Assembly: GCA_016937255.1 (NCBI GenBank)
Contig: JAFGWG010000021.1
Location: 1 to 37,266, forward strand
From: Bacteroidales bacterium
GTDB taxonomy: Bacteria; Bacteroidota; Bacteroidia; Bacteroidales; DTU049
Direction: 5' to 3'
Length of the DNA stretch: 37,266 nucleotides
Shown here: piece by piece, positions 166 to 30,331 of the stretch
Layout: each line of letters opens with the position of its first letter
How positions within the stretch are numbered: position 1 is the stretch's first letter
Program-made: the position numbers and the translations under genes
The notes under the pieces: model-generated
Seen by the model: the letters and a program-made list of their open reading frames with translations, nothing else
Told to the model about the DNA's origin: nothing
The model's database searches: none

Positions 166-3100
166 ATGAGGGTATTTTTTTCGGTTCTGATACTGGTGTT
201 CAGTATGCAGGCTTTTTCTCAACACTTTGAGAATATTCGGGTACATAACCAAAATGAAATTTCTATTGTTCCCACTTTTTTCAGCATTGACCAAAATGTG
301 TCCACTGAAACATTTGCAACATGGTTCAATAAAGAATTTTCATTTGAAATAGATTATGATATTATTGGCACTGAAAAGGATCAATTGGGTATGATCCACT
401 ACCGTTGCCAACAAAAAATAAATGGGCATCCATTGCACAATGGAATATTCATTTTACATACCAAAAATAATTTGGTGCAATCGGTTAATGGAAACATTTT
501 TTCAGATGCGGCAATTATTAACAGTGATGCATTAAATGAATCGACTGCTCTCGATTTTGCACTCGAATCCATAGATGCAGATCAATATAAATGGCAAATT
601 CCTGAAGAAGAAGAGTTGATAAAATACATTGAAAATAATGAAAACGCCACATATTATCCAAAAGGCGTTAAAGTTTTAATCCCTTCCTCAGAAAAAGAAA
701 CTGATTTCATTCTTTGCTGGAAATTTAATATTTACGCCCACGCGCCAATGTCTAGGCAAGAAGTTTTTGTAAATACACAAAATGGTGAAATAGTAAAGGC
801 CCTCAATCTCATTCATGTAACCGATGTACCTGGAACTGCTGTTACTGCCTATAGTGGCACAAAAAATATTGTTGCCGACTCATATAGCGGATCGTATCGT
901 TTACGGGAAACCGGTCGTGGTGGTGGTATTGAAACCTACGACATGAATCAGGGCACCAATTATGGCAATGCAGTTGACTTTAGCGATACTGACAATAACT
1001 GGAACAATGTAAATACACAACAAGATGAATACGCAGGAGATGCGCATTTTGCAACCGAATCTACCTACGACTATTATTACAATAATTTTGGGAGAAATAG
1101 TATTAACGATAATGGATTAAAGCTGATTAGTTACATTCATTACGATGTTGATTATACCAATGCTTTTTGGAATGGCTCATACATGACCTACGGTGATGGT
1201 GGCGGAAGCTATTCTCCTTTAACAACTCTAGATATATCTGGGCACGAAATAACCCATGGGCTCACTTCTTATACTGCCAACCTTGATTATCAAAATGAAT
1301 CTGGCGGAATGAATGAAGGATTTTCAGATATTTTTGGAACCATGGTTGAGTTTTATGGAGACCCTGCATCTGCCGACTGGCTGATTGGCGAAGATATTGG
1401 CTCTGCTTTTCGCAGCCTTTCCAATCCTAATTCATATGGTTTACCCGACACTTATCTGGGCAATAATTGGGTTGCATCAGTAACTACACCAACTCAGGCA
1501 AATGATTATGGCGGAGTTCACACCAATGGCGGGGTATTGATGTATTGGTTTTACTTGGTATCAGAAGGCGGATCGGGAACCAACGATAACGGTGATTCGT
1601 ACAATATTACCGGGCTTGGAAAAAGCAATGCAGCAGCAATTGCTTATCGTTTACTTACGGTTTATCTGACCAACTCTTCTGATTATGCTGATGCCAGAAC
1701 TTATGCCATTCAATCTGCAGTAGATCTTTTTGGCGCATGTACCAGCGAAGTTGGAGTAGTTACAAATGCAATGTATGCCGTTGGAATTGGAGTCCCATAC
1801 GTACCAACTGTTCTTGCTGATTTTGACGCAAATTATACTACTTTCTGCGAAGCACCTGCTACAGTCGATTTCACAAACAGCTCTGTAAATGCAAGTACTT
1901 TCAACTGGGACTTTGGCGATGGTGCCACAAGTACAAGCTCAAATCCTTCACACACATATAATACTTTTGGAGATTATACTGTGAAGCTCTATGCAGATGG
2001 TGGCAGTTGTGGAACAGATAGCTTAATTGAAACTCAATACATTTCTGTTCAGTCAAGCAATCCTTGTATTTATGTTCTTGGTATAACAACTGGAAGCTCA
2101 GAAAATGGTTGTTCCGGCATATTATATGATAGCGGTGGTGATGGAAATTATCAAGATAATACCGATTATTCAGTTACCATTCAACCTGCAGGAGCTGATG
2201 ATATTACCTTAACATTCAATTCCTTTGACTTTGAAAGTGGTTATGACTATTTGTATATTTACGATGGTCCAAGCACGGCTTCATCTCAGGTTTCTGGTAG
2301 TCCTTTTGATGGGACCAGCTTGCCAGGAGGAGGATCAATAACTTCCAGTGGAAGCTCTATTACTATACGCCAAACAACCGATCAGGGATTAACTCGTTCG
2401 GGGTTTGAGTTGGAATGGCTGGCAAATTATTCTGGCGGCAGCATGGCAGCAAACTTTTCTGCCAACACAACTTCAACCTGTACTGGAGAAGTACAATTTA
2501 TGGACTCTACCACACATTGTCCGTTTGCATGGACTTGGGATTTTGGAGATGGAAACACTTCTTCTCAATCGAACCCATGGCATTATTATGCAGCAAATGG
2601 AACCTATACGGTAAAACTAATAGTAAGTTCAGCTAGCGGCACCGATTCCATCATTAAAACCAACTACATTACGGTGGCTCTTCCGCCTGCACCTTCGGGA
2701 ACTGGAGATCAGCAATGTGGCCCGGCGTCTCTTACACTATCTGCAAATGGCGCAGGCGTATTAAGTTGGTATGATCTACCCACAGGGGGCTCTTTACTTG
2801 ATACTGGAAGCACTTTTATTACCGGTACACTGAATAGCACAACCATTTATTATGTAGAGGATAATATTGAGGGGACTCCCTACTATGGAGCTTCTACAAG
2901 TAGTAATTCAAATGGAGACTATTTCCCTAATGCATATGTCCATTACCTTGAGTTTGATGTCTCCAAAAAAATTGTATTGAAGTCAGTTGAAGTAAATGCA
3001 GGATCTGCAGGCGACAGGGTTATTGAACTGCAAAATAGCAGTGGAATAACTTTGGAATCAAGTACCATCAATATTCCTTTAGGAATAAGCAGAATTGACC

Positions 3101-3831
3101 TGGATTATATTATTGATGCTGGAACCGGATACAGGTTGGTTGGACCGTTAAGTCCAAACCTGTACAGAAATAACAGCAATTGTAATTACCCTTATTCTGT
3201 TGGAAATTCCGTTTCAATAACCAAGTCTAGTGCTGGCACAGATCCCTATGGCTTCTACTATTATTTCTACGATTGGGAAGTAGCTGAATTCTGCACCAGT
3301 GCAAGAACTGCAGTTGCCGCTACAATTGATCCATCTCCCACTGCGTTGTTTAGTGCAATTGAAACGGGTTATAATGTAGATTTTACTGATCTATCTTCAA
3401 ATGTTGATTCTTGGCATTGGGATTTTGGCGATGGCGACACATCCAATTTACAAAATCCTAGCCATCTATACACTGCTCCTGCAAGCTATATTGTTACACT
3501 TACTTCTTATAATGAGTGTGGCAGCAATCAACACGCTGAAACTCTCAATATCATGAATGTCGGTATTGAAGAAACAGAGAATATCGCAATTGAGCTCTAT
3601 CCAAATCCAAGCAACGGATTTATAAACGTTGCATTTATGTCCGAAGCCAATACCCAATACAATCTAGTAATTCATAATGCGCTCGGTCAAAAAATATTTT
3701 CAGAGGCACTGAACGGAAACGGACAAATTATTGTCTTAGAAAAAGACTTCTCAAGTTTTGCTACAGGAATGTATTATTTAATGATGCAAAGCGAGAAAGA
3801 AAGTGTAGTTAAAACATTTAGTATTAAATAA
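166..3831 (+). CDS. Secreted M4 (thermolysin-family) metalloprotease with PKD, CUB and T9SS sorting domains
   Basis: This is a zinc endopeptidase predicted to be secreted by the type IX system. The ATG at 166 is chosen because a signal peptide (residues 1-19, ending AFSQ) starts there; the frame opens 46 codons earlier. Residues ~20-215 are an FTP/PepSY-type propeptide. The catalytic domain (~219-548) shows HEITH at 360-364, the third zinc ligand E384 in MNEGFSD exactly 20 residues after H364 as in thermolysin, and H452 matching thermolysin His231. Then come PKD1 (~551-633), CUB (~644-755), PKD2 (~761-836), an Ig-like segment (~839-899), an unnamed domain (~904-1055), PKD3 (~1058-1132) and a T9SS type A sorting domain (~1134-1221) with YPNPSNG. 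All catalytic residues are present, so it should be active. It lies 17 bases upstream of a C25 protease with the same tail, probably in one operon. The natural substrate is unknown. Confidence 0.93.
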   Translation: MRVFFSVLILVFSMQAFSQHFENIRVHNQNEISIVPTFFSIDQNVSTETFATWFNKEFSFEIDYDIIGTEKDQLGMIHYRCQQKINGHPLHNGIFILHTKNNLVQSVNGNIFSDAAIINSDALNESTALDFALESIDADQYKWQIPEEEELIKYIENNENATYYPKGVKVLIPSSEKETDFILCWKFNIYAHAPMSRQEVFVNTQNGEIVKALNLIHVTDVPGTAVTAYSGTKNIVADSYSGSYRLRETGRGGGIETYDMNQGTNYGNAVDFSDTDNNWNNVNTQQDEYAGDAHFATESTYDYYYNNFGRNSINDNGLKLISYIHYDVDYTNAFWNGSYMTYGDGGGSYSPLTTLDISGHEITHGLTSYTANLDYQNESGGMNEGFSDIFGTMVEFYGDPASADWLIGEDIGSAFRSLSNPNSYGLPDTYLGNNWVASVTTPTQANDYGGVHTNGGVLMYWFYLVSEGGSGTNDNGDSYNITGLGKSNAAAIAYRLLTVYLTNSSDYADARTYAIQSAVDLFGACTSEVGVVTNAMYAVGIGVPYVPTVLADFDANYTTFCEAPATVDFTNSSVNASTFNWDFGDGATSTSSNPSHTYNTFGDYTVKLYADGGSCGTDSLIETQYISVQSSNPCIYVLGITTGSSENGCSGILYDSGGDGNYQDNTDYSVTIQPAGADDITLTFNSFDFESGYDYLYIYDGPSTASSQVSGSPFDGTSLPGGGSITSSGSSITIRQTTDQGLTRSGFELEWLANYSGGSMAANFSANTTSTCTGEVQFMDSTTHCPFAWTWDFGDGNTSSQSNPWHYYAANGTYTVKLIVSSASGTDSIIKTNYITVALPPAPSGTGDQQCGPASLTLSANGAGVLSWYDLPTGGSLLDTGSTFITGTLNSTTIYYVEDNIEGTPYYGASTSSNSNGDYFPNAYVHYLEFDVSKKIVLKSVEVNAGSAGDRVIELQNSSGITLESSTINIPLGISRIDLDYIIDAGTGYRLVGPLSPNLYRNNSNCNYPYSVGNSVSITKSSAGTDPYGFYYYFYDWEVAEFCTSARTAVAATIDPSPTALFSAIETGYNVDFTDLSSNVDSWHWDFGDGDTSNLQNPSHLYTAPASYIVTLTSYNECGSNQHAETLNIMNVGIEETENIAIELYPNPSNGFINVAFMSEANTQYNLVIHNALGQKIFSEALNGNGQIIVLEKDFSSFATGMYYLMMQSEKESVVKTFSIK

Positions 3832-3848
3832 AAACTAACCCATCTAAC

Positions 3849-6800
3849 ATGAGAACATATTTAAGCATCTTTTTTGCGTTTGTTTTTTCACTAAGTATGA
3901 TGGCACAAGGAGAGTTTATCTCTTTTGGGTCAACTCAAAACAGTAAGGAAACCGAACCGATTCGTACCATTGATGACAATGGCTTAAACGGAATTGATAT
4001 TCAGTATGAATTTTCAGGAGCATGGTTTTCAACTCATGAAGTTGAAGGAACAAACTATCAAAAAATCAATATCCCGGGGTTTTCATACCTTATGGAAGTA
4101 GGCAAGCCTGCATTACCATCGCATAACGACATAATTGCCGTTCCGGTTGGCGCAACTGCTCAGGTAGAAATCATCAGCTATGATGTCACAGAAATTACCG
4201 ATGTCGTTGTGTTCCCTACCCTCAAGCCTGCGGCTGATTTTGTAGGTGCTCCAGAGCCAGACTTTGAAATCGACGGTGCTTTTTATCAAAGCAATACCAT
4301 TTATCCTGAAAAACTGGTGCAAATTAGCTCAATCAATTATTACCGTGGCGTTCCACTAGCTATTGTTCAGGTTCATCCTGTTCAATATAACCCAGCAGAA
4401 CGCAAATTATATGTCTTCAGTAATATTCAATATAAAGTCACTTTCAGTTCAGCATCAGAGTTTTTTAATAAAGACGAATTCTCAGATCATGCTCTTGAGA
4501 TTTTCCCAAATTATGTATTAAATGGTGAATCTGTAAAGGTCGAAATTGAGCAATATCAGACTCAGTTTCCGCAACGAGCTATTTCAGGACCCAGCAAAAA
4601 CTATATTCTCATTACTCCAAACGCATATCTTCAAGCAGCTGATTCACTGGCACAATGGAAGCGTCAGTTGGGATATTCAGTTGAGATCGTTTCACAACCT
4701 ACATGGACTAATACACAAGTAAAATATGAAGTAGCACAGAGATATGCCAATTGGACTCCCAAGCCTGATTATGTTTTACTTCTGGGCGACCATGATTTGG
4801 TTCCAGGAGAAGTTTTAGTAGGACCTTATGGTAATTTTGCCACTGACCTTTACATGGTTTGCATGGATGGAAGTTCAGACTATTATCCCGATATTGCCAA
4901 GGGAAGAATTTCTGTTTCGTCTGCTTCAGAAGCCATGAGTGTGGTTATGAAAATCATTAATTACGAACGCACCCCTCCAACACAGGCATCTTATTATACA
5001 AACGCAGTAAACTGTGCCTATTTTCAGGAATCGGCAACAACAGGCTATGCAGAACGTCGTTTTGCTCAAACCAGTGAAGATATTAGAACCTATGTTAATG
5101 GAACACTTGGCTATAACGTAAAAAGAATATACTTCACGGAAAGTAATGTTTACCCAACACATTGGAATAACGGAACTTATTCTGCAGGAGAAGATTTACC
5201 TCCGTCCTTACTTAAACCAGGCTTTGCATGGGATGGTGGTTATCAAGATATTATAGACACTATTAATTCAGGTGTTTTTTATGTTTTCCATCGAGACCAC
5301 GGTTATGAATATGGCTGGGGAGAACCAGCATATAGCAATTCCCAAATGAATGGCATGGCTAATGGAAATTTAACACCAATCGTATTTAGTATTAATTGCC
5401 TTACCGGAAAATTCTTGGAAACAGAATGTTTTTCTGAAAAATTCCTCCGTTATCAAGATGGTGGTGCATCTGGAGTATTCTGCCACGCAGAAACCAGCTA
5501 TAGTGGTTGGAATGATGGTCTTTCACTTGGATTAATTGATGCGATATGGGCAAATCCTGGTCTGGTTCCTAATTTTACAGGATCTGGAGGTGTAAATAAC
5601 CCAACGCTCTCGCCACATAGCAGCATTTACGAAATGGGAGATGTAGCCAATCAAGGACTTATCAGAATGGTTGAAACTTGGTCTGATAATGAATATACGC
5701 ATCAGCTTTTTCATTATCTCGGCGACCCTGCCATGAAAATGTGGACAGCACAGCCTACCACAGTAACTGCTACGCATACCAACAATGTTGATTGCGAAGA
5801 CAGTATTGTATATATTTATTCAAGCTCGCTTAGCGATGGATTAGCAACATTGGTTATTGATGGAGCTCTTATTGGCGAAACCCAACTTGTTGGTGGAGTT
5901 GGACAAATCAGTTTCACACCTCCTCTATCTGGAAACTATGCATGGATTACGGTTTCAAAACACAATTACAAGCCTTATGTTGCCAAAATTCCAATTACTG
6001 GCGACTGTGTTGATGCAAAATTCAGCTATACCCCTGGTACGACTTGTATAGGTGGAGATGATATTGTGTTTACTGATCAGTCAAGCGGTACTATTCTCAC
6101 CTATCTCTGGGACTTTGGCCCCAACGCCAATCAGGCCACAGCCTCTACCGCAGGGCCACACACCGTATCTTTCAACGGCTTTGGATATCAGGTTGTCACA
6201 TTAAAAGTATGGGGCGTTACTGATTCTGCTACATATGTTGACAGCGTTTACGTTGAAGAATACTGTTCTTACCTCATGTCGGGTACACAAACTATTACAG
6301 AGTGTAATGGTAAACTCTATGATGATGGTGGCACCAGTGATTATTCAGCCAATACTAATTACTCTACTACAATTTCACCTCCAGGAGCAACAGCCTTAAA
6401 TATTAACTTCTCTGTTTTTGATATTGAAGCAGGAACATCAGGTTGTAATTACGATTATATCTCCATTTATGACGGTCCTTCAACAGCCTCTCCATTAATT
6501 GGTAAGTATTGCAATAATGTTGGAAGCCCGGGAACTTTCTCTACCACCGGAGGTAGCGTTACTATTGTTCAATATTCCGATGCCAATGTTCAGGGCGATG
6601 GCTTTGAAATGTTGTGGAATTGTGTATATGCTGCCATACCTCCTGCTGCTGCATATATAGCCAGTGATACTAATACTTGTAATGCTACCATTGCGTTTAC
6701 TGATTTGTCTTTAAACGGAGTAAATTCATGGCTATGGGATTTCGGCGACGGTACAACCTCAACACTAGAAGACCCAGTTCATACTTATGCTACAAATGGA

Positions 6801-8030
6801 ACATTTACTGTTACTCTTATCGTAACCAACTCATACGGTTCAGATACACTTGAAAAAATAGATTATATTGTGATATCAGCCCCAGATATTCCTGTAGGTG
6901 TTGATGCACAGCGTTGTGGCCCAGGATCATTAACATTGAGTGCAAGTGCAAGTGGTATTGTTAGATGGTATAATAGCCCTACAGCAACTACTTATTTAGA
7001 TACTGGAAACACCTATATTACCCCTACACTCTCTGCTACTACAAATTATTATGTGGAAAATATGATTCCTGGAGCATCTTTGTATGGCGGAGGTACTTAT
7101 AATTCATCTAATGGTTCATATTACATTTCTACTGGAGAACATTATCTGGTATTTGATGTTTTCACAGATATTATTCTGAAATCAGTTGAAGTTCATGCCA
7201 GCGGAACAATGAATCGCACTATAGAATTACAAGATGCTAGTGGCAATACAATTGATTCAAGAACCATCAATATCACTGATGGAACCAGCAGAATTAACCT
7301 AAACTTCGATATTCCTGCAGGAAATGATTACAGACTTGCCGGACAGGCTGCACCCTATTTATTCAGAGACAGTGCTAATTGTAACTATCCGTATGATATT
7401 AACGGATTGGTTAGCATCAATAATAGTAGCGCAGGCTCAAACCCAACAGGATATTATTATTATTACTATGACTGGGAAATTGCTGAGTTTTGTACCAGTG
7501 GAAGAGATATTGTTACCGCAACAATCAATCCTGTACCACAGGCCAGCTTTACATATTCCACATTGGGCTTTGATGTCAACTTTACCGGTCTCTCACAAAA
7601 CTCCGATACTTGCACTTGGGATTTTGGAGATGGAACAACCTCAGGACTTGCAAACCCAAGTCATAACTATGTAAGCCCAGGCACATATATTGTGAGTTTA
7701 ACTTGCTCAAATGCTTGCGGATCTGACGTGTACAACGACACTATCAATATTATGAATGTAGGTATTGTAGATGGAAACTCAAATAGTATAATGGTTTATC
7801 CTAATCCAAGTTCAGGAATCATTAATATCAGTTTCTATTCGAGTGCTGAAAAAAAATACAGTTTAAGTATTCATAATGTTTTGGGACAGGTTCTTAGCAA
7901 TGAGATTGTAACTGGAACAGGACAAAACATTCTGATACAAAAAGACATGAGCTCATATGCAAACGGAGTCTATTACCTTAGAGTTCGCGCCGAGGATCTT
8001 AATTTGATCCGAAGCTTCGTAATAGAATAA
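3849..8030 (+). CDS. Gingipain-family (C25) cysteine protease with PKD, CUB and T9SS sorting domains
   Basis: This is a secreted cysteine peptidase. A signal peptide (1-20, ending MMAQ) precedes a gingipain-type propeptide (~21-243) and the C25 catalytic domain (~250-625). The catalytic pair is visible as H484 in FHRDHG and C517 in SINCLTG. The 33-residue spacing equals that of His211 and Cys244 in gingipain RgpB. An Ig-like region (~632-720) follows, then a degenerate PKD (WDFGPN instead of WDFGDG, ~721-808), CUB (~814-928), PKD (~935-1008), an Ig-like segment (~1013-1071), an unnamed domain (~1076-1228), PKD (~1230-1303) and a T9SS sorting domain (~1308-1393) with YPNPSSG. From the first PKD to the end it is collinear with the M4 protease upstream. 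Cleavage specificity (Arg, Lys or other) cannot be read from the sequence. A hairpin terminator follows. Confidence 0.92.
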   Translation: MRTYLSIFFAFVFSLSMMAQGEFISFGSTQNSKETEPIRTIDDNGLNGIDIQYEFSGAWFSTHEVEGTNYQKINIPGFSYLMEVGKPALPSHNDIIAVPVGATAQVEIISYDVTEITDVVVFPTLKPAADFVGAPEPDFEIDGAFYQSNTIYPEKLVQISSINYYRGVPLAIVQVHPVQYNPAERKLYVFSNIQYKVTFSSASEFFNKDEFSDHALEIFPNYVLNGESVKVEIEQYQTQFPQRAISGPSKNYILITPNAYLQAADSLAQWKRQLGYSVEIVSQPTWTNTQVKYEVAQRYANWTPKPDYVLLLGDHDLVPGEVLVGPYGNFATDLYMVCMDGSSDYYPDIAKGRISVSSASEAMSVVMKIINYERTPPTQASYYTNAVNCAYFQESATTGYAERRFAQTSEDIRTYVNGTLGYNVKRIYFTESNVYPTHWNNGTYSAGEDLPPSLLKPGFAWDGGYQDIIDTINSGVFYVFHRDHGYEYGWGEPAYSNSQMNGMANGNLTPIVFSINCLTGKFLETECFSEKFLRYQDGGASGVFCHAETSYSGWNDGLSLGLIDAIWANPGLVPNFTGSGGVNNPTLSPHSSIYEMGDVANQGLIRMVETWSDNEYTHQLFHYLGDPAMKMWTAQPTTVTATHTNNVDCEDSIVYIYSSSLSDGLATLVIDGALIGETQLVGGVGQISFTPPLSGNYAWITVSKHNYKPYVAKIPITGDCVDAKFSYTPGTTCIGGDDIVFTDQSSGTILTYLWDFGPNANQATASTAGPHTVSFNGFGYQVVTLKVWGVTDSATYVDSVYVEEYCSYLMSGTQTITECNGKLYDDGGTSDYSANTNYSTTISPPGATALNINFSVFDIEAGTSGCNYDYISIYDGPSTASPLIGKYCNNVGSPGTFSTTGGSVTIVQYSDANVQGDGFEMLWNCVYAAIPPAAAYIASDTNTCNATIAFTDLSLNGVNSWLWDFGDGTTSTLEDPVHTYATNGTFTVTLIVTNSYGSDTLEKIDYIVISAPDIPVGVDAQRCGPGSLTLSASASGIVRWYNSPTATTYLDTGNTYITPTLSATTNYYVENMIPGASLYGGGTYNSSNGSYYISTGEHYLVFDVFTDIILKSVEVHASGTMNRTIELQDASGNTIDSRTINITDGTSRINLNFDIPAGNDYRLAGQAAPYLFRDSANCNYPYDINGLVSINNSSAGSNPTGYYYYYYDWEIAEFCTSGRDIVTATINPVPQASFTYSTLGFDVNFTGLSQNSDTCTWDFGDGTTSGLANPSHNYVSPGTYIVSLTCSNACGSDVYNDTINIMNVGIVDGNSNSIMVYPNPSSGIINISFYSSAEKKYSLSIHNVLGQVLSNEIVTGTGQNILIQKDMSSYANGVYYLRVRAEDLNLIRSFVIE

Positions 8031-22886: not shown

Positions 22887-22915
22887 AAAGGGCTGCATTA
22901 TGTGGCCCTTTTTTT
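22887..22915 (+). terminator. Terminator of the Exb operon
   Basis: AAAGGGC (22887-22893) pairs with GCCCTTT (22905-22911) over an 11-base loop, continuing in T to 22915. It overlaps an in-frame ATG at 22900, which argues that the true start of the next gene is further on. Confidence 0.8.
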
Positions 22916-22933
22916 ATTCACAGGAATTTGCAG

Positions 22934-22941
22934 TACCTTTG
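22934..22941 (+). promoter_or_regulatory. -7 element of the sacsin-like ATPase gene
   Basis: TACCTTTG, a perfect TAnnTTTG, ends 6 bases before the ATG at 22948. The predicted transcript would start 2-3 bases before, or at, the start codon. No -33 TTG is seen. Confidence 0.5.
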
Positions 22942-22947
22942 TTACGT

Positions 22948-25926
22948 ATGAAAGGCATTACGCTGAGTGAACATATTCGCCAATCGAAAATTGCCGTGGC
23001 TGCCAATAAAATAAAAGGCAACCGCCATGGGCAAATTCTCTCTATGCTTTATGCAGATCCCTATCATTTTATTGAAGAAATTATTCAGAATACGGAAGAC
23101 GCATGCAGAAATTTATCTAATTTTGAAGATAAGGGGATTTTAAGGGTATTGATTTTAGATAATGCCATCGATATTTATCACAATGGCAAAGCATTCGATG
23201 AGCAAGATCTAATGGCGATCAGCACATTTGCCTCTACCTCTAAAAAAGGCACACCCGATATTAATATGATTGGAAAATTTGGCATTGGATTCCGGTCTGT
23301 ATATGGTATAAGCGAAAACCCGGAGATTCATAGCGGCGAGCATCATTATCGTATCTTAGATTATGAAATACTCGAAACCTGCGAAAGTCGCTCCACACAT
23401 GAATTTACAACACTGATCCGACTGCCTTTTAAAAAAGATCTCGACTCAAGAATTATTGAATCTACACGCAATAAACTCCTGCAATTGGATCATACCCTGC
23501 TATTATTTTTAACTCATTTACGCAAAATTGAAGTAGAGAGTGGTGCTAAAAGATTGAGCATACAACGTGAAAATATATTATTGCAAAAAGACATATACAA
23601 AACTTCCTTACAAAGCAGTGGCATAATTTCTAAAATGGAAAATTACCTTGTATTCAGGAAAAACACCCATGGAAAACAAGAATGTGCAATAGCTTTTTGC
23701 CATGGAACGGAGTCCGATCATTTTATACCATTGGCAAATAAACCTGTGGCGGTGTATTTTCCCACACAATATTCGCTGAAACATTCATTTTTAACACACG
23801 GGCGATTCACTACAAATCCAACCAGAGAACAAATTATTTTTAATCGCGAATATTGCCCTGAAAATTTTAAGATAAGCACTGATCTAGGCGATTTATTACT
23901 TAAAAGCTTTAAGTTCTTGCGCAAAGAAAAATATCTGAATTCTTCATTTTATAGTTTGTTTAATTGGAATATCCAAAATCCTGATCCTCTTCATGAAAGT
24001 ATCGAATCAAGCATAGATAAATTTTTAAGAGAAGAAAAATCACTTCAGAATACTGAAAATCAATACAAAGAATGCAAAAGTCTTTGCATACCAGAGCATG
24101 ATTTACTTCGAAATCTCACCAAGAATAAAGATATTTTCAATATTTGGTCTCGATTCGATTTTCTGCACGAAACATTATGCAGAAATGAAACTTTTCTTCA
24201 ATACCTTCAAAGAAAACATAAACTCAAAAAGGCTGACTTAGATTCACTTGCCTTCCATATACGACAACATCCTGAATTTCTAAAGAAAAAGAAATTTAGT
24301 GAGTTGACTATTTTTTATCAAATTCTTTCAGAACATACAAAATACTGGGATACAAAACATGCCGATCGCTATTATTCAGTAAGATACAGCCAAATCATCC
24401 CCGACACTAAGAAAGAATTGAAAGCACCATTTCATACCGATGGGCGCCCTGCAATTTTTCTTGGCGAAATAAAAGGTAAAGTCCCACTGGTTCATCCAGA
24501 ATTAGCCGCCAATAGCGCAAATAGAAATTTTTTCAAAATGCTGGGTATTCCTGAAGGGAGTCCCGGTCTTGCAGAAGCGGAAAAACTGATTGCGGCTATT
24601 CGAATGCACAATGCCAATCCCAATTTATTTCGGCTATATCAACTGTATATTGACGGGAATTCCACACTAAAAGACCGAATATCTACTTTGCTCTTCAAAA
24701 CGAATTGCATCCGAACCATAGAATCAGGCAGCGGTGAGAAAAAACTTGATAAACCTGGAGAAATATATCTGCAAAAACCAGAACTGGAGAAATTTTTCTC
24801 AAATATCAATGTCTCTTTTATCAGCCCAGATCTTTACAAATATTTCGAATCAAATCAAATTTCGGAAAAAGAAACTGAATTCTTCTTAAATAATATTGGA
24901 GTCCAAGCGTTTCCACGAATAATTCCTATTAAAAACACCCTAAACGAACACAAGAAAAAAGAACTCAGAGGCGAAATTGAGATTCACCCTATTGTAAAAG
25001 AAGAAATTATAGACTTCAGCATTGAAGGCCTTGATGAATTCCTTAGTTTTCCATCCTTTGAAGCATCGGTAGCATTGTGGGCATTGCTTTGCAATATGCC
25101 AGAAGAGTATTTTGAAGCCAGCTATACTTTTGAATCGTACGTTAGATCCGAATGTGTTTCATTTATACCAGATTTTATTCAGACCCTAAAAAAGACTGCA
25201 TTTCTGTACGACAAAAACATGAATGCAAGATCTGGCAATGAAATAAATGCAGACGAGATGCATGATGCCTATGAAAAAAACGCTGGGAATTATAATCGCA
25301 TTCTCAATATTTTTCAGATTGACGGGTCTTTATCATCTTCACTCAACAAAAATGAAGAAGACCTCATCCGTTTTATCCGCCGTCAGAAAATAGATCCCCT
25401 AAAATTCATTTCAAACGAGAAAATGAGTAGATCTGATCATGAATATATCTTTACAAAATATAATGGTGATTTATCTGAATCACATCAAAAAAGTGGTGCA
25501 GATTTTAACCAATGGTCGCAACTGGCGCAGAGCCTTCCGTTTAATTCTGAATATCAGCCAGATATTGAAGCCCTTGATTTCTTTTTAGACACTGCTACAC
25601 AAAAAATAAGGGAACATTTATTAAAAAATGTGTATGCAGAGTCGAAAAGCATAAGCATAGCATTTAAAAGCAATGGGATTTTGAAAATAATGGAAAATGG
25701 CGATTTTCTATCATGGGTTTTCATTGGACAAAGAAATGCTTTTGGCGGCTATATCATGATGCATCCATATATCGAACAACTATTGCTTGAGCGGCCCAAT
25801 CGCAGAGATATTATCGCATATATTGCAGATAAGCAACATTGTATGTTGGTTGAATCAGAAAATATAGACAAATTCTTGAAAAACAATATCTTACTCACCT
25901 TAAAAAGAATGAAATTCACCCGCTAA
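22948..25926 (+). CDS. Sacsin-like HSP90-type (GHKL) ATPase protein, function unknown
   Basis: The 992-residue protein has an N-terminal ATPase of the sacsin/NOV type. The Bergerat N-box is EEIIQNTEDA (E44, N48, D51). The second motif is HNGKAF (78-83), typical of sacsin-like rather than HSP90 proteins. The lid glycine motif is IGKFGIGFRSVY (108-119). A downstream FLTHGRFTTNPTREQI resembles the sacsin segment that follows the ATPase. The remaining ~650 residues are helical, charged and unrecognised, with no nuclease, helicase or transmembrane signature. The ATG at 22948 is preferred over the one at 22900, which lies inside a terminator. The TAA overlaps the tilS ATG by one base, so the two are translated together. 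Chaperone-like action or an antiviral role are both possible; neither is shown. Confidence 0.85.
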   Translation: MKGITLSEHIRQSKIAVAANKIKGNRHGQILSMLYADPYHFIEEIIQNTEDACRNLSNFEDKGILRVLILDNAIDIYHNGKAFDEQDLMAISTFASTSKKGTPDINMIGKFGIGFRSVYGISENPEIHSGEHHYRILDYEILETCESRSTHEFTTLIRLPFKKDLDSRIIESTRNKLLQLDHTLLLFLTHLRKIEVESGAKRLSIQRENILLQKDIYKTSLQSSGIISKMENYLVFRKNTHGKQECAIAFCHGTESDHFIPLANKPVAVYFPTQYSLKHSFLTHGRFTTNPTREQIIFNREYCPENFKISTDLGDLLLKSFKFLRKEKYLNSSFYSLFNWNIQNPDPLHESIESSIDKFLREEKSLQNTENQYKECKSLCIPEHDLLRNLTKNKDIFNIWSRFDFLHETLCRNETFLQYLQRKHKLKKADLDSLAFHIRQHPEFLKKKKFSELTIFYQILSEHTKYWDTKHADRYYSVRYSQIIPDTKKELKAPFHTDGRPAIFLGEIKGKVPLVHPELAANSANRNFFKMLGIPEGSPGLAEAEKLIAAIRMHNANPNLFRLYQLYIDGNSTLKDRISTLLFKTNCIRTIESGSGEKKLDKPGEIYLQKPELEKFFSNINVSFISPDLYKYFESNQISEKETEFFLNNIGVQAFPRIIPIKNTLNEHKKKELRGEIEIHPIVKEEIIDFSIEGLDEFLSFPSFEASVALWALLCNMPEEYFEASYTFESYVRSECVSFIPDFIQTLKKTAFLYDKNMNARSGNEINADEMHDAYEKNAGNYNRILNIFQIDGSLSSSLNKNEEDLIRFIRRQKIDPLKFISNEKMSRSDHEYIFTKYNGDLSESHQKSGADFNQWSQLAQSLPFNSEYQPDIEALDFFLDTATQKIREHLLKNVYAESKSISIAFKSNGILKIMENGDFLSWVFIGQRNAFGGYIMMHPYIEQLLLERPNRRDIIAYIADKQHCMLVESENIDKFLKNNILLTLKRMKFTR

Positions 25927-29467: not shown

Positions 29468-30331
29468 TTACTGCTTTATAAAAGAGCCGCGGAAATTAAG
29501 TTCTCCAACTGCTTCAACAAAATATACACCTGTTGCCAACGATGAAATATCAATTAAGGCAATAGCTTCAGAATTTTGCTGCATAATTAAAGATCCTTTT
29601 GGGTCAAAAACCTTGATGAGATATGTTCCAGGCATTGGCAATTCAATTTGTAATTCATTTGCGGCCGGGTTTGGGTAAAGTACCATTCCTGCATCAGTGT
29701 TTTCATTTATCGCAAGAATATAATCGTATTCAATCACATAATAGCAAAGGCTGGTACCCTGTATATCGTTCCACTCTCCTGTATCTCCCAATACAGTAGT
29801 GCCCGAAGGCCATCCGGTAAGGCCAATTGCTCCACAATCCTGTCCTGCACCATAATCATCGGGTTCGTTGGGAATTCCTGAGCCGGCACCACCCCAGTTA
29901 ATATACGCACCACCAATTGCTGCACCGGTTCCCGCCCCATTAGCCCCCTCACCAGTCCAGAAATTGGTGCCTGAAGCGTCATTATCTCCGTCCCAAAGCC
30001 AAGTTCCTTCTGTTTCATTATCGGTTGCACCAATCCATACGTATGCAATTCCGCCACCATTGGAAATAGTAGTATACGTAGGAGAAACCCCAGCCCCACT
30101 AATAATTGCATCGAAAACAGCATCCTGCTCAGCCTGAGAAGAGATATCTACCAAATACCCACCACGCTCCAAAGCACAGGCCGCAGCATCAGGCCATATT
30201 TGCATTTCCATAACCACTTCATAGGAATGTCCGGCATAATCAAATCGGTAAATATTGGAATCATTTGCACATTGTGAGAAAATTTCCAGAGCAAATAAAA
30301 TTAAAACCACTGATAAAGCAAAATTTTTCAT
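29468..30331 (-). CDS. C-type lectin domain protein with T9SS sorting domain
   Basis: This is a predicted surface or secreted glycan-binding protein of 287 residues. A signal peptide (1-20, ending FSQ) is followed by a C-type lectin domain (~28-205). It shows the family order: W-x-x-A-x-x-x-C (WPDAAACALERGGYL), WIGATDNETEGTWLWDG, an EPDD motif near the usual EPN/QPD sugar-binding site, and GEWND before the last strand (YYVIEYD). The EPD variant leaves sugar preference open; ice or protein binding also occurs in this fold. A T9SS sorting domain follows (~215-287) with YPNPAAN and GVYFVEA. It is a stand-alone gene. Confidence 0.9.
   Translation of the reverse strand: MKNFALSVVLILFALEIFSQCANDSNIYRFDYAGHSYEVVMEMQIWPDAAACALERGGYLVDISSQAEQDAVFDAIISGAGVSPTYTTISNGGGIAYVWIGATDNETEGTWLWDGDNDASGTNFWTGEGANGAGTGAAIGGAYINWGGAGSGIPNEPDDYGAGQDCGAIGLTGWPSGTTVLGDTGEWNDIQGTSLCYYVIEYDYILAINENTDAGMVLYPNPAANELQIELPMPGTYLIKVFDPKGSLIMQQNSEAIALIDISSLATGVYFVEAVGELNFRGSFIKQ

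What the first reader, a model, noticed from the sequence alone, without database searches (positions are those of the whole stretch)
1800..8030. Two unrelated proteases share one ~670-residue C-terminal module
The M4 metalloprotease and the adjacent C25 cysteine protease have unrelated catalytic domains. From ~1800 and ~6010 respectively, both run through the same order: PKD, CUB, PKD, Ig-like, unnamed domain, PKD, T9SS tail. The two stretches are nearly equal in length (about 2.0 kb each), and matching phrases occur at the same points (for example IYDGPSTAS, LKSVEV, YDWE-x-AEFCTS, NIMNVGI). This looks like duplication of a whole display cassette behind two different enzymes, in one operon. 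The pair may act together on one substrate or surface site.
Basis: partly seen in the sequence, partly recalled or inferred. Interest (0 to 1): 0.7.

Follow-up and report, generated by a model that had tools for sequence, protein, structure and literature searches.

The report
Two proteases with part-copied shared tails
Two neighbouring bacterial genes encode unrelated, probably secreted protein-cutting enzymes with look-alike tails; most of that likeness is an old, common design, but about the last 30% of each protein appears to have been copied from one gene to the other.

Summary
In detail: an M4 metalloprotease (166-3831) and a gingipain-type C25 protease (3849-8030) carry the same seven-domain tail, PKD-CUB-PKD-Ig_7-U-PKD-T9SS signal, 45% identical. 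"Duplication of a whole cassette" is only partly right. The same series stands behind other M4 and C25 proteases of the order, mostly on different contigs. In the window the tail is a mosaic. M4's PKD-CUB-PKD is 56% identical to another genome's M4 but 41% to its neighbour, 54th of 68 non-self matches. From Ig_7 to the end (~380 residues) the two are each other's best match in 295 genomes (421-424 bits; next 281 and 304). The change-point lies near M4 residue 845. An old one-block copying between the genes fits best. Ig_7-U segments are also more alike between enzymes of one genome than between genomes. U has no confident Pfam or NCBIfam match and is predicted to be a beta-sandwich, perhaps PHR-like. 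Precedents: KLIKK proteases and gingipain/HagA adhesin modules. A new variant of a known kind.

The parts
166..3831 (+). M4 (thermolysin-like) metalloprotease gene, 1221 aa, with T9SS sorting tail
   Evidence: HEITH at 360, NEGFSD at 383, GGVH at 449 (roles of these motifs recalled)
361..1788 (+). FTP propeptide and Peptidase_M4/M4_C catalytic domains of the first protein
   Evidence: Pfam, (coordinates shifted by 4 residues to the ATG start); thermolysin 5a3y E 2.9e-63
1816..2682 (+). N part of M4 tail: PKD1-CUB-PKD2, of M4-family ancestry
   Evidence: best relative an M4 of another genome, 345 bits 56%; neighbour C25 150.5 bits 41%, 54th of 68 non-self matches
2683..3828 (+). C part of M4 tail: Ig_7-U-PKD3-T9SS signal, shared with the neighbour gene
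   Evidence: neighbour C25 421 bits 52%, next in 295 genomes 281 bits
2596..2868 (+). inferred boundary of the shared block in the M4 gene (best M4 residue 845, bootstrap 5-95% 811-901)
   Evidence: change-point test
2881..3339 (+). U: unnamed ~150-residue domain, M4 copy
   Evidence: no confident Pfam/NCBIfam match
3586..3828 (+). T9SS type A sorting tail of the M4 protein
   Evidence: Por_Secre_tail E 4e-10, TIGR04183 34.8 bits, cut-off 23
3832..3848 (.). 17-bp gap between the two genes (tandem, same strand)
3849..8030 (+). C25 (gingipain-type) cysteine protease gene, 1393 aa, with T9SS sorting tail
   Evidence: HRDHG at 481, INC at 515 (catalytic residues recalled)
3993..5990 (+). Propeptide_C25, Peptidase_C25 and a weak C25 Ig-like domain (C25_C, below its cut-off)
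   Evidence: Pfam; gingipain R2 4ief E 2.5e-22
6015..6881 (+). N part of C25 tail: PKD1-CUB-PKD2, of C25-family ancestry
   Evidence: best relatives are C25 proteases of G255, G063, G169; window M4 not listed at E<=1e-40
6882..8027 (+). C part of C25 tail: Ig_7-U-PKD3-T9SS signal, shared with the neighbour gene
   Evidence: neighbour M4 424 bits 52%, next 304 bits
7080..7538 (+). U: unnamed ~150-residue domain, C25 copy; predicted beta-sandwich, perhaps PHR-like
   Evidence: AlphaFold2 mean pLDDT 92; VIA-align Z 11.9, rmsd 2.8, 132 aligned, 3no8_A PHR domain
7785..8027 (+). T9SS type A sorting tail of the C25 protein
   Evidence: Por_Secre_tail E 6e-11, TIGR04183 39 bits, cut-off 23

Best explanation
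A tandem pair of secreted or surface proteases, an M4 metalloprotease and a gingipain-type C25 protease. Both end in a type IX secretion (T9SS) sorting signal and carry a rod of beta-domains that probably places the enzyme on a substrate or the cell surface. The seven-domain rod is an old design of this bacterial order, attached to each enzyme family before the sampled genomes diverged. Later, in this lineage, the last ~380 residues (Ig_7-U-PKD-T9SS signal) were copied as one block from one neighbour to the other, by gene conversion or unequal recombination. The tails are therefore mosaics: an enzyme-specific PKD-CUB-PKD base and a shared, pair-specific end. Shown by sequence: the domains, the mosaic, its boundary, and T9SS genes in the genome. 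Inferred: the age of the rod (from the trees), the recombination mechanism, its direction (no firm answer), export and surface anchoring, and binding roles.
For: Same architecture and 45% identity. Over the N part the pair has 37.5% (M4-C25 pairs from different genomes: mean 38.8); over the C part 51.8% (mean 34.6, sd 3.3, max 43.0; 291 pairs). Change-point statistic 2.44 against a maximum of 1.78 in 256 different-genome pairs and of 1.25 in 8 other genomes with both tails. Four searches of 295 genomes agree. C-half tree: the pair are sisters, SH-aLRT 99.9; N-half tree: all C25 on one side, SH-aLRT 100. Within the own genome, with M4's last 163 residues as query, the partner scores 168 bits and the next match 93. 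SprA 2655 bits and PorU 1341 bits are present.
Against: Forcing the pair together in the N-half tree costs 23 log units, but the AU test does not reject it (p 0.114). The careful whole-cassette tree puts the two in separate enzyme groups and alone would argue for vertical descent. Over Ig_7+U alone the pair (53%) is only tenth of 80 same-genome cross-enzyme pairs; the M4-C25 pair of G063 has 55%. Other genomes show raised likeness in single segments, such as G095's sorting tails, 46% against 27%, though its two genes lie on different contigs. DNA identity is too low (41-60%) to see conversion tracts. Only the best 6-8 candidates per genome were scored, so ranks are approximate.
Confidence: 0.72

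Rival explanations
1. One reading: the whole ~670-residue cassette was duplicated behind a second enzyme in this operon.
For: Same seven domains in the same order, nearly equal length, adjacent genes, 45% overall identity. The AU test does not reject the pair as sisters over the N part (p 0.114).
Against: M4's PKD1-CUB-PKD2 is 56% identical to another genome's M4 and 41% to its neighbour; the neighbour's N part is closest to C25s elsewhere; N-half tree holds all 12 C25 rows on one side; the same series occurs where the two genes lie on different contigs.
Confidence: 0.07
2. Pure vertical descent: each enzyme family got the cassette long ago, and the likeness of the C parts is slow evolution or a style common to the genome.
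For: Whole-cassette tree separates C25 from the rest with 100/99 support; Ig_7-U identity is raised between enzymes of one genome in general.
Against: C-part identity of the pair lies about 5 sd above different-genome pairs while the N part is at background; the partner is an outlier inside its own genome for PKD3 plus sorting tail (168 bits, next 93) and among 295 genomes.
Confidence: 0.1
3. Both genes received their Ig_7-U-PKD-signal end from a third gene of the same genome, or from a transferred one, and not from each other.
For: In the Ig_7+U tree the pair's next neighbour is an M14 protease tail of another genome, 96/89; tails of different enzymes also pair up in other genomes.
Against: No third copy of this flavour was found in the genome: its other confident U copies score 142 bits or less against 307-310 and sit in other groups of the tree. 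The assembly is 96% complete in 254 contigs, so a donor may be missing or lost.
Confidence: 0.15

Closest known systems
KLIKK proteases of Tannerella forsythia (PMC4404884; abstract start and passages seen)
   Same: [quoted passage not shown] the authors call the near-identity unusual, suspect a common and rather recent origin and say that explaining it needs further research. That the six belong to different catalytic classes is recalled beyond the two serine proteases named in the passages.
   Different: There the shared end is the last 86 residues, virtually identical, with a conserved 30-residue motif further up; here it is ~380 residues of four domains, ~52% identical and old, on M4 and C25 heads behind an enzyme-specific PKD-CUB-PKD base.
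Gingipains RgpA and Kgp and the adhesin HagA of Porphyromonas gingivalis (PMC5266723; passages seen)
   Same: C25 protease heads followed by adhesin modules that are shared between separate genes, with rearranged modules and a conserved ~80-residue C-terminal domain.
   Different: Their modules are cleaved adhesin domains and DUF2436, with identical repeats within and between hagA, rgpA and kgp; here CUB/PKD/Ig_7/U domains join two unrelated enzyme classes.
PHR domains (BTBD2, MYCBP2) and CBM6/CBM35-type carbohydrate-binding modules, compared with U
   Same: The predicted fold of U matches PHR domains best (Z 11.9-11.1, rmsd 2.8-3.0, 128-132 of 153 residues); carbohydrate-binding modules match at Z about 6-7.
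   Different: PHR rows have 7-12% identity; baseplate and capsid chains follow closely at Z 10.0-10.3 with rmsd 4.4-8.6; Foldseek's best E is 0.004; no sequence-family link. A shared fold shows no function.

Membership tests
Peptidase family M4 | thermolysin-type catalytic domains with HExxH and downstream Glu/His | tested here: met
   Pfam M4 5e-38 and M4_C 1e-41; HEITH 360, NEGFSD 383, GGVH 449 (roles of the residues recalled)
Peptidase family C25 (gingipain type) | C25 domain, C25 propeptide, catalytic His and Cys | tested here: met
   Pfam C25 3e-59 and Propeptide_C25 2e-18; HRDHG 481, INC 515 (catalytic roles recalled); not PorU: 45.5 bits against cut-off 420
T9SS type A cargo | C-terminal sorting domain, with SprA and PorU in the genome | tested here: met
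   Por_Secre_tail and TIGR04183 above cut-offs in both proteins; SprA 2655 bits, PorU 1341 bits
T9SS type A cargo | actual export, signal removal and surface attachment | not testable with these tools
   needs experiment
KLIKK-like set of proteases with a shared recent C-terminal domain | virtually identical C-terminal ~86 residues ending in the KLIKK motif | tested here: not met
   Sorting tails of the pair are 46% identical and end in FSIK and FVIE; resembles the set, is not a member
PHR domain family (for U) | PHR-type beta-sandwich fold and sequence | tested here: inconclusive
   Z 11.9 to 3no8_A, but no PHR model among the 16 Pfam families that any of 30 members matched at E<=1
Carbohydrate-binding module (for U) | glycan binding | not testable with these tools
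   only fold similarity at Z about 6-7

The most novel reading that the evidence does not exclude
Ends of T9SS cargo proteins (Ig_7-U, the PKD before it, less so the sorting tail) evolve in concert within each genome across unrelated enzymes (M4, M14, C25, papain, trypsin, SprB-repeat proteins), because they are repeatedly copied between genes. The window pair is a clear tandem case with a readable boundary, and it offers a general answer to why unrelated proteases of one bacterium share a tail.
Probability: 0.4. Interest if true: 0.65.

Novelty: new variant of a known kind. Interest (0 to 1): 0.45.

Why it matters
A shared tail on several T9SS proteases of one bacterium was noted as unusual and unexplained for the KLIKK set (PMC4404884, passages). 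Here such a sharing can be placed after the split of the enzyme families, its edge can be located, and the same within-genome likeness can be measured over many genomes, so the origin of shared tails becomes testable.

Tried and rejected
Whole-cassette duplication: not supported, though not formally rejected by the AU test. House style of the genome as sole cause of the pair's likeness: not supported for PKD3 plus sorting tail, though a general same-genome excess exists. Composition as cause of that excess: it survives regression on whole-protein composition in four of five segments (PKD before Ig_7, Ig_7, U, sorting tail; 0 of 500 shuffles each) but not in the PKD after U (168 of 500). The excess in the PKD before Ig_7 means that, over all genomes, the shared unit does not begin sharply at Ig_7.

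Conserved adjacency: 4 of 16 genomes with both (E<=1e-100 for C25, E<=1e-75 for M4; my count, which scored at most 4 and 7 candidates per genome), in three families; contig breaks may hide more. Adjacency was not shown to go with tail likeness: C-part identity is 42.0 in G062 and 36.4 in G170 (neighbours), 42.3 in G095 (different contigs); G063's C25 frame has no sorting tail, so that pair is not in this count. Direction of copying: no firm answer; the best further match of C25's C part is a C25, whereas the first two further matches of M4's C part are not M4 (G080:C26 M14 and G050:C24 divergent C25, heads). PDB sequence search with U gave only WD40-repeat matches over 23-25 residues, taken as chance.

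Literature: the searches listed 5, 0, 1, 2, 1 and 0 papers; no title or abstract start named tail exchange between M4 and C25 proteases. PMC5266723 was then read in passages; the others were seen as listings only.

Rows dropped: 19 of the 107 matches (74 bits and weaker) were not fetched. Near copies were removed before (44 to 39 rows; 88 to 76; 102 to 90); searches left near copies out of the background. M14 and papain heads were assigned to whole BLAST clusters from one Pfam-scanned member each; C25 heads other than the window's by BLAST alone, split at 38% identity; four heads stayed unassigned. The bootstrap of the tree had not settled. Trees are of the quick kind.
Full report
What is there. 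The window opens with two genes on the + strand, 17 bp apart. The first (166-3831) is a thermolysin-type M4 protease of 1221 residues; the second (3849-8030) a gingipain-type C25 protease of 1393 residues. Motifs of both active sites are present (their roles are recalled). The C25 is not PorU: the genome's PorU is elsewhere at 1341 bits, against 45.5 for this protein. Behind both heads Pfam finds PKD, CUB, PKD, Ig_7, an unassigned stretch, PKD and the T9SS sorting tail. The tails align end to end at 45% identity.

How common the design is. I looked for the unassigned stretch (called U, ~150 residues) in 118 related genomes, own included: 35 have it, with 107 matches (matches summed by me). I fetched the surroundings of 88 of the 107. 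Heads in front of U were M14 carboxypeptidase 26, M4 24, divergent C25 17, gingipain-type C25 8, papain 4, SprB repeats 2, sortilin 1, M6 1, trypsin 1, unassigned 4. With 20 more stretches, chosen for their M4 or C25 heads, the complete seven-domain series stands behind 16 M4, 11 gingipain-type C25 and 2 M14 proteins, window included, of 102 U-bearing ORFs (my count; 102).

Linkage. In a sample of 295 genomes of the order, 28 have a gingipain-type C25 (E<=1e-100) and 16 of these also an M4 (E<=1e-75) (my count). The two are neighbours, M4 first, in 4 of 16: the window, G063, G062 and G170; G062 and G170 are one genus. In the other 12 the matches lie on different contigs; these are draft assemblies, so some adjacency may be hidden.

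The tail is a mosaic. In the 44-row alignment the pair's identity is 29, 41 and 41% over PKD1, CUB and PKD2, no more than the background of 27, 44 and 45%. From Ig_7 on it is 53, 52, 58, 51 and 46%, against backgrounds of 35, 40, 46, 34 and 24%. Over the N part the pair has 37.5% (M4-C25 pairs of different genomes: mean 38.8), over the C part 51.8% (mean 34.6, sd 3.3, maximum 43.0, 291 pairs). A change-point test puts the edge at M4 residue 845 / C25 residue 1017 (bootstrap 5-95% 811-901) with a statistic of 2.44; the maximum is 1.78 among 256 different-genome pairs and 1.25 among 8 other genomes with both tails. Single segments are raised elsewhere too, for instance G095's sorting tails (46% against 27%).

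Four searches of the 295 genomes agree. M4's C part (382 residues): the neighbour gives 421 bits, 52%; the next match 281 bits. C25's C part: neighbour 424, next 304. M4's N part: the best match is another M4 (345 bits, 56%) and the neighbour comes 54th of 68 non-self matches at 150.5 bits. C25's N part: the best matches are C25s, and the neighbour is not listed at E<=1e-40. These searches scored only the best 6 to 8 candidates per genome.

Trees agree, with caveats. The careful Ig_7+U tree (88 rows) joins the two window copies at 99/88; its bootstrap had not settled. The quick C-half tree joins them at SH-aLRT 99.9, and the AU test rejects one clade of all C25 there at p 0.040. The quick N-half tree holds all C25 on one side at 100, but the AU test does not reject joining the window pair there (23 log units, p 0.114). 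A tree of the whole cassette is dominated by the enzyme split and puts the pair apart.

Not only this pair. In 76 Ig_7+U rows, identity between different enzymes of one genome is 44.7% (80 pairs), between different enzymes of different genomes 39.7% (2224) and between like enzymes of different genomes 40.6% (539); 0 of 2000 permutations reach the first value. The best cross-enzyme match lies in the same genome for 27 of 68 rows, 2.6 expected; the window pair, at 53%, is tenth among the 80. The excess stays after correction for composition in the PKD before Ig_7, Ig_7, U and the sorting tail, but not in the PKD after U. What sets the window pair apart is the whole block: with M4's last 163 residues as query in the own genome the neighbour scores 168 bits, the next 93. 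The general pattern fits repeated copying of tail segments between genes, or selection within genomes; I cannot separate the two.

What U may be. AlphaFold2 gives mean pLDDT 92. The best structural matches are PHR domains (Z 11.9, 11.3, 11.1; rmsd 2.8-3.0; 128-132 residues), followed by baseplate and capsid chains (Z 10.0-10.3, rmsd 4.4-8.6), esterase beta-sandwiches (about 8) and carbohydrate-binding modules (about 6-7); Foldseek alone is weak (best E 0.004). Thirty members have no confident Pfam or NCBIfam family. "PHR-like" is therefore tentative, and a binding or spacer role is an inference.

How it most likely works. Shown: both proteins end in a sorting tail, and the genome has SprA, PorU and at least 150 matches to the sorting-tail family, the number scored. 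From established knowledge of T9SS, such proteins are exported and often fixed to the surface after the tail is cut. Inferred: the PKD/CUB/Ig/U rod places two complementary proteases on the same surface or substrate, and tandem position allowed one block of the rod to be copied between the genes.

Against what is known. The nearest precedent is the KLIKK set, whose near-identical C-terminal domain was called unusual and left unexplained (PMC4404884, abstract start and passages). The next is the adhesin modules shared by RgpA, Kgp and HagA (PMC5266723, passages). The present case resembles these but differs in length, age, enzyme classes and domain content. I rate it a new variant of a known kind.

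Noticed in passing
window 29468-30331 (-): A 287-residue protein with a C-type lectin domain and a T9SS sorting tail.
   Followed up: partly
own genome, all contigs: At least 150 matches to the T9SS sorting-tail family (150 of 257 candidates were scored, all 150 matched): a large T9SS cargo set for 3.9 Mb.
   Followed up: no
own genome C37 (L037) and C190 (L038): An M14 and a divergent C25 protease whose Ig_7-U tails form a second flavour, grouping with divergent C25s of other genomes and not with the window pair.
   Followed up: partly
L117 1259-5569 (G170:C146): Next to the M4-C25 pair lies further C25 sequence in two separate reading frames, with one stop inside the match.
   Followed up: no
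L041 647-4966 (G063:C361): The C25 neighbour of G063's M4 has no T9SS tail in its reading frame, which ends after the PKD that follows U; cause not decided.
   Followed up: no
window 22900-25926 (+): 1008-residue protein with a Sacsin-type domain match (PF25794, E 1.2e-11).
   Followed up: no
L180: U domain on a contig of a MAG labelled Candidatus Delongbacteria: transfer or mis-binning.
   Followed up: no
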